Made by a program: the position numbers and the translations under genes
DNA from: Vallitaleaceae bacterium 9-2
GTDB taxonomy: Bacteria > Bacillota > Clostridia > Lachnospirales > Vallitaleaceae
Direction of reading: 5' to 3'
NCBI GenBank assembly: GCA_038396585.1
Contig: CP121691.1
Coordinates: forward strand, 2,294,001-2,358,000
DNA length: 64,000 bases
In this document: positions 3,506-23,039 of the stretch, one piece after another
How positions within the stretch are numbered: the stretch's first letter is position 1
Layout: each line of letters begins with the position of its first letter
The notes under the pieces: generated by a model
Told to the model about the DNA's origin: nothing
What the model saw: only the letters and a program-made list of their open reading frames with translations
Database searches by the model: none

Positions 3506-4065
3506 TTGTTGCTATAATATATAGGACTGTTCAAGTAAGTCCTGGATTATGGAACGTATTAGCTTTCAACAGATTTCAATACATCCTATGTTACTGTTCA
3601 ACATTAAAACAATTCTAGGTCATACACGTGTTACGACAACATTTCAATACATCGTATGTTACTGTTCAACATGTTGAGTTTGACGATCAGGACACAGACT
3701 ATTCCGATTTCAATACATCGTATGTTACTGTTCAACTACCGCTGTCGCTGGGGTCACTGTGCAATATGCGCATTTCAATACATCGTATGTTACTGTTCAA
3801 CTTGTACTTATACATCTTGTGGCAAGGGCCGTTGATGGATTTCAATACATCGTATGTTACTGTTCAACTATTCACGCTTTTATGGATTGCAATCGTCATT
3901 GGTATTTCAATACATCGTATGTTACTGTTCAACTTCTAGGGAATGGTCGGATACCTATGGACAATATATATTTCAATACATCGTATGTTACTGTTCAACA
4001 AAAGACCTCCTTTCAATAGAAATATTTAATAAGGCATTTCAATACATCGTATGTTACTGTTCAAC
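3506..4065 (-). CRISPR. CRISPR array 1 (8 repeats, 7 spacers, plus a decayed end repeat)
   Basis: Eight 30-nt repeats start at 3573, 3641, 3707, 3772, 3839, 3904, 3970 and 4036, with spacers of 35-38 nt. In crRNA sense (minus strand) the repeat starts GTTGAACAGTAAC and ends GATGTATTGAAAT, giving the 8-nt 5' handle ATTGAAAT typical of Cas6-processed I-B/III arrays. The leader therefore lies on the right, next to cas2. The most distal repeat (3573) carries a C for G in the central CGTATG. A further, badly decayed repeat ending ACTGTTCAA is at 3506-3535, exactly one spacer length away. Confidence 0.97.
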
Positions 4066-13006: not shown

Positions 13007-13944
13007 GCAAAGGTACATTTGATGTTACGGTTCAACTAGATGGACCATCCTGTATATTTGTTATATACTGCCTATTTCAATACATCGTATGTTACTGTTC
13101 AACTCTAAAGCATTTTCTTGTCAAAATACCATTAACAAATTTCAATACAACGTTGTGGGTAAATTAGCCATATTTCAATACATCGTATGTTACTGTTCAA
13201 CTAATGTAAGCGTCGAAAGTGGACCTTCCTTTGCATCATTTCAATACATCGTATGTTACTGTTCAACTAATGGTAACAGTATCAATCCAGCCTTTCTAAC
13301 CGAATTTCAATACATCGTATGTTACTGTTCAACAGTCTTTACAGAATCAACCGTTTGAACAACATCATTATTTCAATACATCGTATGTTACTGTTCAACC
13401 AAGTTGAATCCGAAGGGAGAAAAAATGGATAGAATATTTCAATACATCGTATGTTACTGTTCAACCGGCACTATGTTTGACGGAATGTTTATTGTAGGCA
13501 TATTTCAATACATCGTATGTTATTCAATACATCGTATGTTACTGTTCAACTGAAGAACCCCCTCAAATATCTTCACGATGAACAACATTTCAATACATCG
13601 TATGTTACTGTTCAACAGGCAATATGGAATTGGCTGAATATATTTTTGGTATATTTCAATACATCGTATGTTACTGTTCAACCAAGGATATGCCAATGGG
13701 TCATGGGAAAGAGATATAATTTCAATACATCGTATGTTACTGTTCAACTGCCCCAGTTATTAATAATTAGCATCGGAATTCCGAATTTCAATACATCGTA
13801 TGTTACTGTTCAACAAAACATTGGTCGGAAAATGTTCTGTTAACTGTTATTTCAATACATCGTATGTTACTGTTCAACTGTTCTTGACCATGGCGATGTC
13901 CAAGATGTTCCTATATTTCAATACATCGTATGTTACTGTTCAAC
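13007..13944 (-). CRISPR. CRISPR array 2 (13 full repeats, three partial or decayed ones)
   Basis: Full repeats start at 13074, 13172, 13238, 13304, 13370, 13436, 13522, 13587, 13653, 13719, 13785, 13849 and 13915; ordinary spacers are 34-37 nt. The repeat is the same as in array 1. A decayed terminal repeat is at 13007-13036. A repeat fragment (ATTTCAATACA) sits at 13139 inside a 68-nt interval. At 13502-13550 a 20-nt truncated repeat is joined directly to a 29-nt repeat, so one spacer is lost. The leader is on the right; crRNA is read on the minus strand. Confidence 0.97.
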
Positions 13945-14119: not shown

Positions 14120-14509
14120 TTAATCACTCTCCATAGCTTCAGCCGTATTTTTTAACCAAATCGAATATTCTAATATTTCTTTCAGCACAAGCCTTTGATG
14201 CGTATGTGATGCATTAATTAACTCTACTATACATTCATTTTCATCAGTCGCCTGTATAAAAGGCAATCCTATAATGAATTCAATATACCAATTGTAAAGT
14301 GATGTTTCTTCTATATCCCCCTTACCTTTTTGCTGTTTTAAGTAGCACAACGTCGATATTATTCCATGTTCTTTAAATAGTATTGGAAGGCGCCGACATA
14401 AAGATTTCAACTCTGATTTTGACTCTTTATTGCATTTTTCTTCGATATGATAATATGCCCATAAAGCCCGTTTTCGATTCATCTGAATAGGTAAGCTATC
14501 AATATTCAT
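14120..14509 (-). CDS. cmr5: Cmr5 (type III-B small subunit)
   Basis: 129 aa, all-helical. The block LCRRLPILFKEHGIISTLCYL matches the Cmr5 pattern (R..LP.L...G...TL.YL; shown here without the rest). Cmr5 subunits line the inside of the Cmr filament and cover target RNA. The ATG at 14509 follows GAGGAGG and overlaps the end of cmr4. It is the last gene of the III-B operon. A second Cmr5-like domain is fused to Cmr6 in the same operon, which is unusual. Confidence 0.85.
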   Translation of the reverse strand: MNIDSLPIQMNRKRALWAYYHIEEKCNKESKSELKSLCRRLPILFKEHGIISTLCYLKQQKGKGDIEETSLYNWYIEFIIGLPFIQATDENECIVELINASHTHQRLVLKEILEYSIWLKNTAEAMESD

Positions 14510-15380
14510 GATTTACCTCCTCAATAACCTTAAGTCTACCTTTTCCAAGTGTCGTCCAACCTCCAACAAACATCTGAAAATTTTTGCTCGTCTGTTGATG
14601 CCACTTTTTCAAGAGGATTTGCTCACTAATCTCATTCTTATTATCTTTCTTCGAACTATTTTTATAAAACACCTCTTGTGAAAAACCATGAATATGTCCA
14701 TAAAAAATCGTTCCTTCTGGCAATAACTCTACACTAAACAACCCTGAATCCTTAGCCGTACCTGTTGACTCGCTAACTCGAATTTGCGTTTTTTGCTCTG
14801 TAAAAAAGTTGGTAAAAACCTCCAAATTGTTGTGTGCCAAAATAACCAATCGTTCTTGAATATGTTTAAAAAAAGCTGATTTAAACGTGAGATCTTTTAG
14901 CAAGACACACTCAAAAGGATAATCCGCCAAATACATTCTATCTGGATATGTCGAGAAAACGAGGGCTTTATCTATACTATCTCTACTTTCACTTTCTGTA
15001 ATCAGCATCTTTAGATCGTCCATAAGTTCAGTGTGAGTATCCTTGTCTATCAAATGCATATCTTGATATATTTGTTCCAATATAGGGCGCGAAGTTATAA
15101 AAGCATGAATTTTTTCAGAACATTCTACAGGAAAAGCCACCATGTTCAAATCGCTAAAAGCTAAAACACCTGGTTGTCTATCTCCTCCATAAAGTCGCTT
15201 CTGGGTATCTCCTATGCTTCCAAGGGTTTTATGGCGGTATGCACCTTTGATTGTTGTACTATCAATTTTAGGCATCCCATCTCTATGATTTCTTTGAATC
15301 GGCATATCTATCTGACTATTGCCCGAACTGGCTCCAACATGAATCGGTGTCAGTGCTTGATAGAATCGTGTTATTGTCAT
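14499..15380 (-). CDS. cmr4: Cmr4, catalytically competent copy (III-B backbone RNase)
   Basis: 293 aa RAMP protein. The N-terminus reads LTPIHVGASSGNSQIDMPIQR. The Asp before MPIQR corresponds to the slicer residue D26 of Pyrococcus furiosus Cmr4, so this copy should cut target RNA. Other Cmr4 marks are STTIKGAYR, TGTAKDSGLF and GGWTTLGKGRLKV near the C-terminus. The start overlaps the stop of the upstream CARF gene (ATGA), with GGAGGG before it. A second, diverged Cmr4 is encoded at 20500-21384. Confidence 0.92.
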   Translation of the reverse strand: MTITRFYQALTPIHVGASSGNSQIDMPIQRNHRDGMPKIDSTTIKGAYRHKTLGSIGDTQKRLYGGDRQPGVLAFSDLNMVAFPVECSEKIHAFITSRPILEQIYQDMHLIDKDTHTELMDDLKMLITESESRDSIDKALVFSTYPDRMYLADYPFECVLLKDLTFKSAFFKHIQERLVILAHNNLEVFTNFFTEQKTQIRVSESTGTAKDSGLFSVELLPEGTIFYGHIHGFSQEVFYKNSSKKDNKNEISEQILLKKWHQQTSKNFQMFVGGWTTLGKGRLKVIEEVNHEY

Positions 15381-16738
15381 CGTCTATCCCTCCAATCCAT
15401 ATCTTCATAAAGTTCTAGAAGTTTTTCCTGAATCTCATCTATACCCCAAATCTGAATATTTGAACGATATGCTGCACGAACTGTGGTCATAATATATTCT
15501 ATATCGTCTTCTTTTTTTGCCATATTACCGATTTCCTCATATCCTTTTTTTGACAAAGGCGTTATCAACACAGGTTTTCCATAGACTCCACCAGTCTCAT
15601 ACGCTGTATACATCCTAGCTTTTAATGTATCTGATGGCGCAATTCCTGCTTTGCATTCAATAATCACCAATTGCCCACTAACCGTCGTTATCACAATATC
15701 AAACTCACAAAGATCCGACCTATATTTTGACTTATCACCTCTTTTTTTGATGTTTACACTATGATATAAACCTGTAAAAAACTTCTCTTTCCCCCTATGA
15801 ATGGATTGAATTGCATCTTTTGTCGCAACCAAAGCCATTTTTTCAAGCAAATATCCCCCCATATTTTTCTTATATTTTTTTATATCATCGTTAATGCTAG
15901 CAATGTATTCATCTTCCATACCCCTCTTTACTAACATATCATCCAGTACTTTTGGCTTTTTATTCAATTGTAATATATCTTCAACAAACTCAGTACCTTG
16001 TTTTTCAGTATCCTTCTGATGTACCTTTTGATTCAACTGTCGATAAGCCTTTTCCATGATACCCTTTTCATCCTCTGCCGATATAGGACTTTCTAAATAA
16101 TTCACTGTTGAAGTTTGACTGGTCGTATACCCTGCAAGTTCAAGGATGCCATCCAGCATTATATCACTTCTTGAATAATCTATCGAAAACGCTTCAAATT
16201 CCCAACCTTTATTAGAATTTGTATAATATATCTGTTGTGTGTTCCCTTCCATATACATAATAACATCTTGACCATGGCGCTTCTGTTGCTTTTGCACCCA
16301 AGTCATAATATCTAAAAGCAGATTACGCTGACCTCCCGTTACATTCCATAACGTTTTCCTAGGCAATAATTTTTTAGGATTTTTTAAATCGGCTGTTAGC
16401 GTATCTTGTTGATAAAAGGTGTCATCCAATTCTTTTGTTAGATTACTTAGATTATTTTCCAATTCCACATTTTTTATTGTACACTTCATATTATTACTTT
16501 TTTTCTGAATATATTTGCTAAAGTTTTCGTCCCATTTGGGATTATCAAACCGCTTCATCTTGCTACTTGCTTCGCTTTTCATCTTTTTGGTCAAATTAAT
16601 GATAGATAATTGACTGGAAGGATTTCTCCAATTATCTATCATCGTCAATGGCAAGTAGTTAACCACTTGATTTAAGGTAGAACAGATAACATAATTCTCC
16701 ACATCTTTAAATACCTCATCATGTTTATTCATACGCAT
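15377..16738 (-). CDS. CARF-like effector with PD-(D/E)XK nuclease (Card1/Can2-type)
   Basis: 453 aa. Residues 1-150 resemble a CARF/Rossmann-like sensor (YVICSTLNQVV; SQLSIINLTKK), and WNVTGGQRN resembles the N-TGG-T/K motif of the DUF1887 (Card1/Can2) family. The C-terminal third carries a PD-(D/E)XK centre: CEFDIVI, then LVIIECKAG with the E-x-K pair. Known relatives are activated by cyclic tetra- or hexa-adenylate made by Cas10 and degrade RNA and/or DNA. The gene is embedded between cmr3 and cmr4 with short overlaps on both sides, so it is made with the complex. The nuclease call is firm; the CARF call is an inference from location and motifs. Confidence 0.75.
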   Translation of the reverse strand: MRMNKHDEVFKDVENYVICSTLNQVVNYLPLTMIDNWRNPSSQLSIINLTKKMKSEASSKMKRFDNPKWDENFSKYIQKKSNNMKCTIKNVELENNLSNLTKELDDTFYQQDTLTADLKNPKKLLPRKTLWNVTGGQRNLLLDIMTWVQKQQKRHGQDVIMYMEGNTQQIYYTNSNKGWEFEAFSIDYSRSDIMLDGILELAGYTTSQTSTVNYLESPISAEDEKGIMEKAYRQLNQKVHQKDTEKQGTEFVEDILQLNKKPKVLDDMLVKRGMEDEYIASINDDIKKYKKNMGGYLLEKMALVATKDAIQSIHRGKEKFFTGLYHSVNIKKRGDKSKYRSDLCEFDIVITTVSGQLVIIECKAGIAPSDTLKARMYTAYETGGVYGKPVLITPLSKKGYEEIGNMAKKEDDIEYIMTTVRAAYRSNIQIWGIDEIQEKLLELYEDMDWRDRR

Positions 16739-17832
16739 TCTTCTCCTCCCTCAAAAGGTGCTATCAAAAATTGATTATAGCCCTTATATGTTCCTTCGAG
16801 TTGATTGACAATAGCCGTAAGCTTTTCAGTCCATTCTTTTGTGTTATTTTTATTGCCTCCTGTATTTTTAAGAATAAGGATACTTCCTGGGGCCAAAATC
16901 TTTTGCAAATTATTTGCCTTGTTTTCAGCCATACTATAGCTACCCATATGCTTGGGGCGTTCTGATGCCCCGCCACACACTTCTATGTTATCTTTACACA
17001 GCTTTTCTCTAAGCGCTTCATGTACGGCATAGGTCATGGGTGTTGTAAGAATAAGCTTTACATAACTTCTTTTAGTTTCAAACATTGGCTGTTCAAATAC
17101 AGGATGTGCCTGTTTTTGCCAATATATATAAGCCATTTTTCTTTCTCCACCTAATTGAAGTACTCGATTGTTTTTTTGAGGTAAGTACTCCATTCGTCCA
17201 CTCATAACATATCTTGCCTGACTATCTCTAAAAGCAACTTGTTCGATTCGATAAAGGTGGTTATCCTTTGCCTGTCGATTATTTTGCTCTATTTCAATAC
17301 CTATTTTTTCTTCTATACAAAAAAGCCTCTCCCATGAGACCAGATTTTCACTATCAATCTTTTCATTATTACAATACTGTTTAAACCCTTGTTGGGAAAG
17401 ATACATTTGAGATGCTCGTGTATATGTATCATAGATATCATCTTTGGGTGTCAATGGTCGATATATCCATTTCTCCGCACTGATTTCAATTTTTTTATAC
17501 TCAGCTTTTTTAATCGCTTTTGAATTATAAAATAAATCTATAGGTGCCGGAATCCAAAATGTACGATGACTAAAAAGTCCACTTTTTTCAATTTGAAGGT
17601 ATGTGTCCATCGGTGGTGTCTTTTTATTGCGTATTGAATCTAAGGCTGTCTCAAAAAGTCCCTCTCTTAAAAAGCACGAAAATAAGCTTCCATACAGTGT
17701 CGATGGATAGGGTGTAATCATAGTAGGCACTTCATTGCTACGCTTTTTCTCGAATCGCGTCATATCTCGAAAAAACAGAACATCCATAGGAATGATCATA
17801 CCGCTAAACGCTTCCAACTTTTTATTCTTCAT
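16729..17832 (-). CDS. cmr3: Cmr3 (type III-B, crRNA 5'-handle binding)
   Basis: 367 aa. The N-terminus shows the Cmr3 pattern: MIIPMDVLFFRDMTRFE followed by TPYPSTLYGSLFS. Later come the segments ILTTPMTYA and GGERKMAY. Cmr3 pairs with Cas10 and holds the 5' handle of the crRNA. The ATG at 17832 follows GGAGG and overlaps the cas10 stop by 11 bp. The 3' end overlaps the CARF nuclease gene. Confidence 0.92.
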   Translation of the reverse strand: MKNKKLEAFSGMIIPMDVLFFRDMTRFEKKRSNEVPTMITPYPSTLYGSLFSCFLREGLFETALDSIRNKKTPPMDTYLQIEKSGLFSHRTFWIPAPIDLFYNSKAIKKAEYKKIEISAEKWIYRPLTPKDDIYDTYTRASQMYLSQQGFKQYCNNEKIDSENLVSWERLFCIEEKIGIEIEQNNRQAKDNHLYRIEQVAFRDSQARYVMSGRMEYLPQKNNRVLQLGGERKMAYIYWQKQAHPVFEQPMFETKRSYVKLILTTPMTYAVHEALREKLCKDNIEVCGGASERPKHMGSYSMAENKANNLQKILAPGSILILKNTGGNKNNTKEWTEKLTAIVNQLEGTYKGYNQFLIAPFEGGEECV

Positions 17833-19376: not shown

Positions 19377-20507
19377 TTAATCCCTCCCTTGTTCAAAAGT
19401 ATTCACCATTGAAAACACACCATAGCCAACACTTTTCTTCGCCCCTAAAGAAATGTCACTGATGCACTGTGAAAAGTATTCTATAACAGTCTTGTTGTCA
19501 ATCAAATCATTTGCTTTTTCAGTCGCTGACTTATCAATGCTAATATGAACTTTAAATTTAGCACCTTTTTTTACACTAATCATCTTGATTGGATTGGCTT
19601 TACTTTGTACGTCCTCTTCCTCTTCACTCATTGGTGTAAATCCATCAAGAGTAAGTTCAAGGGAATTGTTATGCTCTAAGCTTGGATATGCATCCCAAAA
19701 AATAAGTCTGCCTTGTTGTCCCCCCTCTGCTTCCACCTTTCCAAAGAGTTCATTAATTACATCCAAAGTTATGCCTTCAACTTCATGAGTCAGATAGGCT
19801 CTAAACGCTCCTTTTAAAGTGCTTGCAGGTATAAAAGGTATTCCTAAAATATGATCTAATTTCATCGAACTTTCTCGAACACTCGGTTCACCTAAACCTA
19901 TGATAAGGTTTGTCAATAAAGTCATCGTTTGAGAACATATCTCTATATCATATGTAGCGGCATATGTTTTTATCATATTTTCCTTATCTTTGATTGCATT
20001 AGCCACTTGCTCCAACGTTTCTTCTTTTGAGTCCTTCCATACATGTTCCAGATCAATCGTAATCTTATGAGCATCTTTGCTGTTATTTGTTTGATAACGA
20101 AAACCTTTGTCAAATTTCAATTTATAATTTTTACTATAACAAAGACTTTTATGTCTATTTTTTATTTTCTCATACTGTTGGCTTGATTTAGCCTTTTCTT
20201 CATCCCTCACATCTTTATCTAGCAAAGTCAATGCTTCTATCACTTTAATCATATAATCATAGGCTAATTTAGTTGTAATTGGAGACATTAACTCCTTATC
20301 ATCTAAGTATTGTACGAGTAAACTAGAAAAAAAAGGACTTGGTGATTTTTTATATGCCAAAAACTCCAATGTTGGATATAAGCCATTGGTTCGAATAAGG
20401 GTTGGAATATCCCGCGCTACAGATATAAGTTCTTGATTGTTAAGCTTATATTCTTGGCTCTTTTTATCATCAATAAACTTCAGTTGTTGTAAAATGTCCT
20501 TATGCAT
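19377..20507 (-). CDS. cmr6: Cmr5-Cmr6 fusion protein
   Basis: 376 aa from the ATG at 20507 (GGGGGA upstream). An in-frame earlier start at 20531 would lie within the upstream gene. The C-terminal part (about residue 190 onward) is Cmr6: GLGEPSVRESS, GIPFIPASTLKGAFR, ELFG and, at the end, GAKKSVGYGVF. The N-terminal ~110 residues contain ARDIPTLIRTNGLYPTLEFL, which mirrors the Cmr5 signature and aligns by eye with the free Cmr5 of this operon. Between them is a helical, charged linker. Cmr6 caps the 3' end of the crRNA filament. Fusing one small subunit to it would fix a Cmr5 at that end. Confidence 0.8.
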   Translation of the reverse strand: MHKDILQQLKFIDDKKSQEYKLNNQELISVARDIPTLIRTNGLYPTLEFLAYKKSPSPFFSSLLVQYLDDKELMSPITTKLAYDYMIKVIEALTLLDKDVRDEEKAKSSQQYEKIKNRHKSLCYSKNYKLKFDKGFRYQTNNSKDAHKITIDLEHVWKDSKEETLEQVANAIKDKENMIKTYAATYDIEICSQTMTLLTNLIIGLGEPSVRESSMKLDHILGIPFIPASTLKGAFRAYLTHEVEGITLDVINELFGKVEAEGGQQGRLIFWDAYPSLEHNNSLELTLDGFTPMSEEEEDVQSKANPIKMISVKKGAKFKVHISIDKSATEKANDLIDNKTVIEYFSQCISDISLGAKKSVGYGVFSMVNTFEQGRD

Positions 20508-21384
20508 TTTTAGGTCCCCCTTCAATGACACGAATCAAACCTTTGCCTAAAGTTTTATTGCCGCCCATTTGAATAATTTTAATTTTTTGAACGATATTTT
20601 GCAATAATACATCTGGATCAATGTTTTGATTCTTGACTCGTTCTATCTCCTGGACATCCATAAATGTATAGAAAATAGTTTCACTTGGTACATATTCTTC
20701 TGTAAAAAGATGCCCTTCTTTAGCTATTCCACATTCATCATCAATTTCTATTCGTGTGTTCACTTCAGTGCACATTTCCACAAAATACTTAAAATCATTA
20801 TCACTAATAATCACCGGATCCTTCATATGAGCTTCCAATGTTCCTAGCTGCTTTTTTATTTCCCGAAAAGTTTTATCCATTCCTGCTTTCATTTTTTCCA
20901 TACAAAATTCATGCTCTTCTAAAAAAATGTTTTTATCAGAGTCCGTCTCATAAAAAGGGATATATTGCCCCTCTTTTAATAGATTGGTCATTTCTTCCAA
21001 GTGGTTGATATTCATTTTCTCTTGCATCAGGTTTTCTATATCTGTTATAAAACGTTGTAAGACATAGGGACATGTTATCCATCGAAATATACCTTCTCTT
21101 GTCTTTACAGGAAAAAAGAGAATTCTTGCATCAAAAAAAAGTAAGCTCCCTGCATGAGCCTCGTTACTATTTTCATCTTCACCAAATATGGCTTTATCAT
21201 TATTTTGAGAAGCACCTTTTTCACTTCGAGCATAATGACTTCTATAAGCTCCTTTGATACCGGAGGCTTCGATAATTGGAAAACTTGTATGCCTCTCTCG
21301 TTGTATAGGCATCTTAATGTAGCCAAGGTCTTGACCACTACCAATATGTAAAGGTGTTGCACATTTATAGAATAATATGTTCAT
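20500..21384 (-). CDS. cmr4: Second Cmr4 paralogue, slicer Asp replaced by Lys
   Basis: 294 aa. Clearly Cmr4: ATPLHIGSGQDLGYIKMPIQR, then ASGIKGAYR, SLLFFDARILFFPVKT, CGIAKEGHLF and MGGNKTLGKGLIRV. At the position of the catalytic Asp (D26 of P. furiosus Cmr4; Asp in the other copy) it has Lys in YIKMPIQR, so it is predicted not to cut RNA. Its middle region is longer in charged residues than the other copy. The ATG at 21384 follows AGGAGGAAGAG and overlaps cmr1 by 20 bp. It may be a structural backbone subunit alternating with, or replacing, active Cmr4 at fixed filament positions. Confidence 0.88.
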   Translation of the reverse strand: MNILFYKCATPLHIGSGQDLGYIKMPIQRERHTSFPIIEASGIKGAYRSHYARSEKGASQNNDKAIFGEDENSNEAHAGSLLFFDARILFFPVKTREGIFRWITCPYVLQRFITDIENLMQEKMNINHLEEMTNLLKEGQYIPFYETDSDKNIFLEEHEFCMEKMKAGMDKTFREIKKQLGTLEAHMKDPVIISDNDFKYFVEMCTEVNTRIEIDDECGIAKEGHLFTEEYVPSETIFYTFMDVQEIERVKNQNIDPDVLLQNIVQKIKIIQMGGNKTLGKGLIRVIEGGPKNA

Positions 21385-22114
21385 ACTCTTCCTCCTGTTT
21401 TTTTAATTTTTGTAATAATTTTTGAGCATTATCGTTATTTCCTATAAAGCTACTGATTGTAAGAAACAACTCAGTTTTATATTTATACCCTTCTTTCACC
21501 CCTCTAAAACTTCCAATATATATATTTTCTTCCTTTGCTTCTTCATATGAAAAAATTGACGCATTCATGACTTCACACTCTTTATATATTGAATCATTTT
21601 CTTTTTTAAAACGAAACACATAAGTCAACTTCTCTTCCCCTAATATATTTTTCAATAGACTTTTATAACGGTCTCCTGACAAAAAAACAACTTCCTCTGC
21701 ATATCTTTTATCAACCTCTCCTTTGACTTCAATAATCCTATAAACACCATTCAATTTTCTTTTTCCTTTTCCAAGTCCTCCTAACATAGATGCTCTTTGT
21801 AATGCATCTACATACTTCATAAGATATTGTGCATCGGAATTCTTTGCACGAAAAATAAGACTAAATTTCCCGCCTTTTTCTTGAGAGGTGTTCTCTTCGT
21901 CAAACATTAAAATATCTACTTTTGCCTTATGGGATTGTTCATCATTAGCTACTGCACTTCCGAAAAGTTCATTCGCTTCTTCTTTTCCAAAAAGCTGTGT
22001 ATGCCAAAATCGCATTGCTCCTTTGATTGTGGTTGCAGTAATTCTGAGATTATTGTTCCCATCATGCACTTCTCCTTTTGTAATAAATTCACAGGTTACA
22101 TTGACTTTTTTCAT
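21365..22114 (-). CDS. cmr1: Cmr1 (short form; first gene of the III-B operon)
   Basis: 249 aa RAMP protein. It shows ITATTIKGAMRFWHTQLFG, NELFGSAV and the glycine-rich loop LGGLGKGKRKLNG, all typical of Cmr1. At 249 aa it is shorter than many Cmr1 proteins (often above 300), and the N-terminal TP-hG motif is poorly kept (TCEFITKGEV). Cmr1 sits at the 3' end of the crRNA with Cmr6 and helps capture target RNA. The ATG at 22114 follows AAGGAGGGG. Confidence 0.85.
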   Translation of the reverse strand: MKKVNVTCEFITKGEVHDGNNNLRITATTIKGAMRFWHTQLFGKEEANELFGSAVANDEQSHKAKVDILMFDEENTSQEKGGKFSLIFRAKNSDAQYLMKYVDALQRASMLGGLGKGKRKLNGVYRIIEVKGEVDKRYAEEVVFLSGDRYKSLLKNILGEEKLTYVFRFKKENDSIYKECEVMNASIFSYEEAKEENIYIGSFRGVKEGYKYKTELFLTISSFIGNNDNAQKLLQKLKKQEEEYEHIIL

Positions 22115-22352: not shown

Positions 22353-23039
22353 TACATTTTTTATGTATTTTTACTATTCAACAGAGTTGATGGCGGTGCA
22401 TGGACAACGATTTTCACGATTTCAATACATCCTATGTTACTGTTCAACTTGCTTTAGCCAAACATAAAAAAGACAGATAAGGAATTTCAATACATCGTAT
22501 GTTACTGTTCAACTCTTTGATTTTTTCAAAGGTTTCTTGCAAGAACGCTATTTCAATACATCCTATGTTACTGTTCAACTTAGACGATTACCTAAGGCTA
22601 TAGAGACATAAGGGGATTTCAATACCTCCTATGTTACTGTTCAACATTTCTGTCTAACAGATTCTCAGTAGCCAACACTTATTTCAATACATCCTATGTT
22701 ACTGTTCAACACTAGTAATGGAAGATGGTAAGCTTGCATCTGTCCAATTTCAATACATCCTATGTTACTGTTCAACAGAGTTGTAAAACTAGGAAAAGCA
22801 AAAGATTATCAAATTTCAATACATCCTATGTTACTGTTCAACTTCTCAAATGCAGATTGAATCTCATTATTTTCATCAATTTCAATACATCCTATGTTAC
22901 TGTTCAACCAAAATACATAAATGAAGATTATCCAGATTGGTGGATTTCAATACATCCTATGTTACTGTTCAACACTACATTCTAATATTCAAATAGACGT
23001 TAAACTTGAATTTCAATACATCCTATGTTACTGTTCAAC
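22353..23039 (-). CRISPR. CRISPR array 3 (10 repeats plus one decayed repeat)
   Basis: Repeats start at 22419, 22484, 22550, 22616, 22681, 22747, 22813, 22879, 22944 and 23010; spacers are 35-37 nt. A decayed terminal repeat ends at 22382. Nine of the ten repeats carry the C variant in the centre (CATCCTATG on the plus strand); only 22484 has the CATCGTATG form that dominates arrays 1 and 2. 22616 has one further change (ACCTCC). The crRNA is read on the minus strand with the leader on the right. Confidence 0.97.

What the first reader, a model, noticed from the sequence alone, without database searches (positions are those of the whole stretch)
19377..20507. Cmr5-like domain fused to Cmr6, in addition to a free Cmr5
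The N-terminal part of this 376-aa protein contains ARDIPTLIRTNGLYPTLEFL, matching the R--LP-L---G---TL-YL pattern of the free Cmr5 at 14120. The C-terminal part is plain Cmr6. With the duplicated Cmr4, this gives two backbone and two small-subunit types in one operon, which would allow a defined subunit order along the crRNA instead of a repeated homopolymer.
Basis: partly seen in the sequence, partly recalled or inferred. Interest (0 to 1): 0.75.

Follow-up and report, generated by a model that had tools for sequence, protein, structure and literature searches.

The report
Cmr5–Cmr6 fusion in duplicated Cmr operon
In some clostridial bacteria an RNA-cutting CRISPR immune complex has two copies of its repeating backbone and small subunits, one small subunit is welded to the end cap, and in two of three lineages one backbone copy has lost its conserved cutting residue, so the complex may be built from ordered, non-identical parts.

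Summary
The gene (minus strand, ATG at 20507) has an N-terminal Cmr5 (Cas11) domain and a Cmr6 (Cas7) domain. Residues 1-120 alone pass Pfam's Cmr5 cut-off; on a Cmr5 profile they score 30 bits, against at most 10.4 for 5000 shuffles and 2.7 for 57 ordinary Cmr6 N-termini. A modest-confidence fold model matches solved Cmr5 structures first. The fusion recurs in a same-species genome and in another family of the order. A same-family genome keeps Cmr5a and Cmr6 separate but fuses its second Cmr5 to Cmr4b. All three lineages carry two Cmr4 and two Cmr5 in one operon; a tree places the duplication before they split. Here Cmr4a has K and Cmr4b D; in the distant relative Cmr4a has D and Cmr4b E; all 50 single-copy Cmr4s examined have D. 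No paper searched mentions this architecture. Best reading: a type III-B variant with a head module (Cmr1, Cmr4a, Cmr5-Cmr6) and a base module (Cmr2, Cmr3, Cmr4b, Cmr5), probably a mixed backbone with fewer cutting sites. Ordered assembly is inferred, not shown.

The parts
19377..20507 (-). Cmr5-Cmr6 fusion protein, 376 aa (384 aa from the GTG at 20531)
20196..20507 (-). Cmr5 (Cas11) domain, residues 1-104 of the fusion
   Evidence: PF09701 28.4 bits on residues 1-120; shuffle and Cmr6 controls; profile comparison; fold search
19941..20195 (-). Residues 105-189: about 26 residues of linker, then the N-terminal stretch shared with other Cmr6 proteins
   Evidence: Alignments; 9 of the 14 amino-acid-changing differences between the two same-species genomes fall here
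19380..19940 (-). Cmr6 RAMP domain, residues 190-376
   Evidence: TIGR01898 86.8 bits over cut-off 51.1
20500..21384 (-). Cmr4a: K24 at the position of the slicer aspartate; otherwise conserved
   Evidence: TIGR02580 234 bits; phmmer alignment to P. furiosus Cmr4; 34 of 36 conserved positions kept
14499..15380 (-). Cmr4b: slicer aspartate kept (D25) but otherwise divergent
   Evidence: TIGR02580 139.9 bits; 22 of 36 conserved positions kept
14120..14509 (-). Free Cmr5 (Cmr5b)
   Evidence: PF09701 52 bits
17822..19396 (-). Cmr2/Cas10: short, no HD domain found, GGDD motif present
   Evidence: PF22335 62.6 bits, PADLOC Cas10 94.6 bits; motif read
16729..17832 (-). Cmr3 (Cas5)
   Evidence: PF09700 111.6 bits
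15377..16738 (-). CARF-PD-(D/E)xK protein, probable cOA-activated nuclease
   Evidence: PADLOC CARF4--CARF_PDDEXK 250 bits
21365..22114 (-). Cmr1-like RAMP protein
   Evidence: PF03787 37.1 bits over cut-off; Cmr1 models only weak
13074..13944 (.). CRISPR array next to the base end of the operon
22419..23039 (.). CRISPR array next to the head end of the operon, near-identical repeat

Best explanation
This is a type III-B (Cmr) effector operon in which the adjacent cmr4-cmr5 pair was duplicated and one cmr5 was then fused to cmr6. Shown from sequence: both Cmr4s, both Cmr5s, the fusion, the loss of the slicer aspartate in one Cmr4, a duplication older than the split of three lineages, and a Cas10 with GGDD and no HD domain in the same operon as a CARF-nuclease gene. 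Inferred: one complex forms with Cmr3 and Cas10 at the crRNA 5' end, Cmr4b with free Cmr5b near that base, and Cmr4a near the 3' end under the Cmr6/Cmr1 cap, where the tethered Cmr5a either caps the small-subunit filament or fills the 3' slot that lacks Cas11 in other Cmr complexes. Target RNA would then be cut only under Cmr4b in this species, giving fewer cuts, slower target release and longer Cas10 signalling to the CARF nuclease.
For: Fusion and domain identity. Same architecture in G011 and G042, and Cmr4b-Cmr5b fused instead in G015. In all three lineages the genes stay grouped as Cmr4a with Cmr5a and Cmr6, and Cmr4b with Cmr5b. Cmr4a and Cmr4b separate in 97% of bootstrap trees. Slicer aspartate lost in one paralogue in two lineages against 0 of 50 single-copy Cmr4s; the mutated Cmr4a is otherwise 34/36 conserved. 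Aspartate mutation abolishes cutting (PMC7192623, PMC8682760); slicing-dead Cmr4 over-activates the system (PMC9368842). In type III-Dv, fused non-identical subunits form a complex with no repeated subunits (PMC11026444).
Against: No complex structure, stoichiometry or cutting data exist. Which Cmr5 pairs with which Cmr4 was not modelled. G015 keeps both aspartates, so dead/live division is not universal in the group. The Cmr4a/Cmr4b grouping and Cmr5 tree involve long branches. E in G042 Cmr4b may retain some activity.
Confidence: 0.5

Rival explanations
1. The two Cmr4/Cmr5 sets build two alternative homopolymeric complexes that share Cmr1, Cmr2, Cmr3 and Cmr6: a Cmr4b complex that slices and a Cmr4a complex that only senses and signals.
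For: One Cmr4 has lost the slicer residue while staying well conserved. Only one copy each of Cmr1, Cmr2, Cmr3 and Cmr6 is present.
Against: In this species Cmr6 always carries a Cmr5a, so every complex with this Cmr6 would contain a Cmr5a domain. One operon with overlapping genes suggests joint production. In G015 Cmr4b is fused to Cmr5b, which fits a building block rather than a switch.
Confidence: 0.25
2. The duplication is largely redundant: Cmr4a and Cmr4b mix at random, the fusion is a neutral accident of two adjacent genes, and the slicer loss is tolerated drift.
For: In canonical operons cmr5 and cmr6 are adjacent, so fusion needs only loss of a stop codon. G015 does without this fusion. 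The sister genomes differ at few sites, so tests of selection are weak.
Against: Two sets kept in three distant lineages with the same module layout, paralogues separated early, fusion kept at 37% identity between families, and few changes in the Cmr5 and Cmr6 domains compared with the linker.
Confidence: 0.19
3. The N-terminal region is not a Cmr5 domain but a helical Cmr6 extension with a chance resemblance to the Cmr5 core motif.
For: The match is confident only over the RxIPxLIxxNGLxxTL core. TIGR01881 is below its cut-off. The model from fusion proteins alone was uninformative (pLDDT 32).
Against: Above the Pfam cut-off; three times the score of the best of 5000 shuffles; none of 57 ordinary Cmr6 N-termini match. 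In G015 the same domain is a separate 94-aa gene between cmr4a and cmr6 that itself matches PF09701 at 29.7 bits. Solved Cmr5s are the top eight structure hits, though none passes E 0.001.
Confidence: 0.06

Closest known systems
Canonical type III-B (Cmr) effector, Cmr1-Cmr6
   Same: All six subunit families, an HD-less Cas10 with GGDD as in the Vibrio metoecus Cmr (PMC8682760), and a neighbouring CARF effector gene.
   Different: Two Cmr4 and two Cmr5 in one operon, one Cmr5 fused to Cmr6, one Cmr4 without the slicer aspartate. The V. metoecus paper uses the stoichiometry Cmr1:1, Cmr2:1, Cmr3:1, Cmr4:4, Cmr5:3, Cmr6:1 with a single Cmr4 and Cmr5 type.
Type III-Dv effector (Synechocystis)
   Same: Cas11 fused to another subunit, non-identical Cas7 subunits, and linkers of about 20 residues (PMC11026444).
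   Different: There the fusion is Cas7-Cas5-Cas11, with Cas7-2x and Csx19 and no repeated subunits. Here the fusion is Cas11-Cas7 (Cmr5-Cmr6) in III-B proteins with a Cmr3-type Cas5.
Type III-E Cas7-11e and III-I Cas7-11i single-chain effectors
   Same: Cas7 and Cas11 domains in one polypeptide.
   Different: Those carry three or more Cas7 domains in one chain and come from III-D lines (PMC12669027). Here one Cas7 and one Cas11 domain are joined and the other subunits stay separate.
Cmr6 proteins with an N-terminal cold-shock-type domain (PDB 9arw)
   Same: Cmr6 carrying an additional N-terminal domain.
   Different: The added domain there is named CSD, not Cas11.

Membership tests
Cmr5 / Cas11 (PF09701), for residues 1-104 of the fusion | Match to the curated Cmr5 family model | tested here: met
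   PF09701 28.4 bits, cut-off 21; TIGR01881 25.1 bits, below its cut-off 27.9
Cmr5 / Cas11 (PF09701), for residues 1-104 of the fusion | Small all-helical Cas11 fold | tested here: inconclusive
   All-helical model, pLDDT 61 with Cmr5 relatives in the alignment; best PDB matches are Cmr5 chains at E 0.36 to 1.6
Cmr5 / Cas11 (PF09701), for residues 1-104 of the fusion | Packs along the Cas7 backbone in the effector | not testable with these tools
   Needs a complex structure
Cmr6 (TIGR01898), for residues 190-376 | Match to the curated Cmr6 model | tested here: met
   86.8 bits, cut-off 51.1
Type III-B CRISPR effector | Cmr1, Cmr2, Cmr3, Cmr4, Cmr5, Cmr6 in one locus | tested here: met
   Cmr1 only by the RAMP family and weak Cmr1 matches; Cmr2 and Cmr3 pass Pfam or PADLOC models though not the TIGR cut-offs
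Type III-B CRISPR effector | Single Cmr4 type forming a slicing homopolymer | tested here: not met
   Two Cmr4 genes in the operon, one with K at the catalytic position. This is the usual arrangement rather than a strict criterion, so it marks a variant, not exclusion from III-B
Type III-Dv, III-E or III-I | Csx10-type Cas5 or a gRAMP chain of several Cas7 domains | tested here: not met
   Cas5 is Cmr3; the III-I gRAMP model hits only locally at 24.3 bits against a cut-off of 800

The most novel reading that the evidence does not exclude
A type III-B complex with a fixed, ordered heteropolymeric backbone: Cas11 tethered at the 3' cap, dead Cas7 subunits toward one end and cutting Cas7 subunits toward the other, so that cutting sites and signalling time are set by genetically distinct positions. 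This would be an independent route, inside III-B, toward the fused effectors known from III-D, III-E and III-I.
Probability: 0.35. Interest if true: 0.78.

Novelty: new variant of a known kind. Interest (0 to 1): 0.6.

Why it matters
Type III-B backbones are treated as homopolymers of one slicing Cas7. Here are natural operons with two Cas7 backbone types, one of them lacking the catalytic residue, and a Cas11 welded to the 3' cap. That makes testable whether Cas7 order along the crRNA can be genetically fixed, and how the number and place of cuts set the length of cOA signalling. It would also suggest that the fusion path to single-chain effectors, known from III-D, III-E and III-I, began separately in III-B.

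Tried and rejected
(1) Full-length AlphaFold2 on the three fusion proteins alone: pLDDT 32, useless. (2) A joint alignment of the fusion with free Cmr5 and Cmr6 rows misplaced the Cmr5 rows and was not used for folding. (3) The whole-collection genome scan found only the same-species UBA4039 contig, because its patterns were too specific; viral contigs, phages and plasmids gave no fusion. The Nostoc plasmid hit spanning residues 54-363 is a 643-aa RAMP protein beside a separate small hypothetical protein. (4) Weak Cmr5 matches in long frames in G507 and G516 are unrelated proteins. (5) G838 has three Cmr5 matches, but on three different contigs, and the low-scoring Cmr5 of G057 sits in an operon with an ordinary single set. 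(6) The dN/dS value printed for Cmr2 is an artefact: the two genes differ in length and were compared without alignment; ignore it.

Full report
WHAT IS THERE. The gene lies on the minus strand, ATG at 20507, stop at 19377, 376 aa, with an in-frame GTG at 20531. It belongs to a run of eight same-strand genes with overlapping ends: Cmr1-like, Cmr4a, the fusion, Cmr2/Cas10, Cmr3, a CARF-PD-(D/E)xK protein, Cmr4b and a free Cmr5. CRISPR arrays with near-identical 30-nt repeats flank the operon on both sides, and a third lies at about 3573-4065. Spacers are mostly 36 nt. A Cas6-like gene and genes that read like a type I-B system follow downstream (assignment by eye, no family search was run on them).

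IS THE N-TERMINUS REALLY CMR5? Pfam Cmr5 matches residues 17-96 of residues 1-120 at 28.4 bits (cut-off 21). TIGR01881 falls just short of its cut-off, 25.1 against 27.9. Against a profile of free Cmr5s the real sequence scores 30.2 bits and the best of 5000 shuffles 10.4. The N-termini of 57 other Cmr6 proteins score at most 2.7, while the three fusion sequences score 17 to 30. Profile-profile comparison gives 95% probability, confined to the conserved RxIPxLIxxNGLxxTL core. AlphaFold2 on residues 1-112 with Cmr5 relatives in the alignment gave an all-helical model of modest confidence (pLDDT 61). Its eight best matches in the PDB are Cmr5 chains, at individually weak E values. Because relatives were in the alignment, this supports but does not prove the fold.

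IS IT CONSERVED? The same-species genome G011 (the sequence returned as UBA4039, a Clostridiales MAG) is 96% identical over the fusion. G042, from another family of the order, has the same operon in the same order, with a 331-aa fusion 37% identical to the window's. G015, of the window's own family, has Cmr4a, a separate 94-aa Cmr5a, a separate 236-aa Cmr6, Cmr2, Cmr3, the CARF protein, and a 450-aa Cmr4b whose C-terminus is a Cmr5 domain. No Cmr1 gene was seen beside it. Canonical operons in the class run Cmr1-Cmr2-Cmr3-CARF-Cmr4-Cmr5-Cmr6 with one Cmr4 and one Cmr5 (L020, L024). In samples of 295, 391 and 398 genomes at order, class and phylum level, the only Cmr5 domains found in frames longer than 250 aa, apart from two chance matches checked, are those of G000, G011, G042 and G015. 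Two Cmr4 in one operon also occur only in these four among 62 genomes examined; second Cmr4s elsewhere lie on other contigs or far away, or are pieces of a single gene.

HOW IT AROSE. In a Cmr4 tree the three Cmr4a separate from the three Cmr4b in 97% of bootstrap trees, and all six form one group with weak support (80/60). In a Cmr5 tree the 5a and 5b sets separate at SH-aLRT 96, with long branches. The simplest reading is one duplication of a cmr4-cmr5 pair before these lineages split, then fusion of Cmr5a with Cmr6 in one line and of Cmr4b with Cmr5b in another. Inheritance by gene transfer is not excluded.

THE UNREPORTED POINT: THE SLICER RESIDUE. Cmr4 cuts target RNA with an aspartate (D26 in P. 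furiosus); D26N or D26A abolishes cutting (PMC7192623, PMC8682760). All 50 single-copy Cmr4s aligned have D there. In the window Cmr4a has K24, aligned to that position by phmmer against P. furiosus Cmr4, while Cmr4b keeps D25. In G042 the loss is in the other paralogue (Cmr4a D, Cmr4b E). G015 keeps both. Window Cmr4a keeps 34 of the 36 most conserved Cmr4 positions, so it is not a decayed gene; window Cmr4b keeps only 22 but retains the aspartate. E in place of D could retain some activity; that is not known.

HOW IT MOST LIKELY WORKS. Shown: the gene content, fusion, duplication, residue changes, a Cas10 with GGDD and no HD domain, and a CARF nuclease gene in the operon. Inferred: the two gene clusters correspond to the two ends of one complex. 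[quoted passage not shown]). A Cmr5 tethered to Cmr6 by about 26 residues could cap the Cas11 filament or cover that seed. With one Cmr4 type unable to cut, the target would be cut at fewer 6-nt steps. Since cutting shuts off Cas10 and slicing-dead Cmr4 causes autoimmunity in S. islandicus (PMC9368842), partial loss would be expected to lengthen signalling.

WHAT IT IS NOT. It is not III-Dv, III-E or III-I: Cas5 is Cmr3 and no multi-Cas7 chain is present. It resembles III-Dv in having fused and non-identical subunits. The 2025 classification (PMC12669027) was searched for III-B, Cas11, fused and Cmr5/Cmr6, and the passages shown describe no such III-B variant. Targeted literature searches found no Cmr5-Cmr6 fusion. 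The library is open-access only, so earlier description elsewhere cannot be excluded.

SELECTION. Between G000 and G011 the Cmr5 domain (104 residues) has 3 and the Cmr6 domain (187 residues) 2 amino-acid-changing differences, against 9 in the 85-residue stretch between them. Counts are small, but they fit two constrained domains joined by a looser stretch.

Noticed in passing
L018:2765-4117 (G015): A second, different fusion in a related operon: Cmr4b carries a C-terminal Cmr5 domain (450 aa).
   Followed up: partly
L018:9316-10140 and upstream (L073): The G015 operon starts with Cmr4a; no Cmr1 gene is seen upstream, where an ABC transporter lies instead.
   Followed up: no
20500-21384 and L016:4123-5007: The slicer aspartate of Cmr4 is lost in opposite paralogues in two lineages (D to K in Cmr4a here, D to E in Cmr4b of G042).
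   Followed up: yes
13436-13550: The array near 13500 contains a partial repeat (TTCAATACATCGTATGTTATTCAATACATCG), apparently a local duplication or deletion within a repeat.
   Followed up: no
15377-16738: CARF-PD-(D/E)xK protein encoded between Cmr3 and Cmr4b; missed by Pfam and NCBIfam but matched by PADLOC at 250 bits. Related genes sit between Cmr3 and Cmr4 in several canonical clostridial operons.
   Followed up: partly
L022:6808-7833; L023:8770-9987: Other Cmr6 proteins of the class carry an N-terminal stretch that reads like a cold-shock domain (GIIKKYFADKGFGFIKYNGGDIFFH), so Cmr6 has gained different N-terminal domains more than once.
   Followed up: no
21368-22114: The Cmr1-like protein is short (249 aa) and barely matches Cmr1 models; it may be a reduced form.
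   Followed up: no
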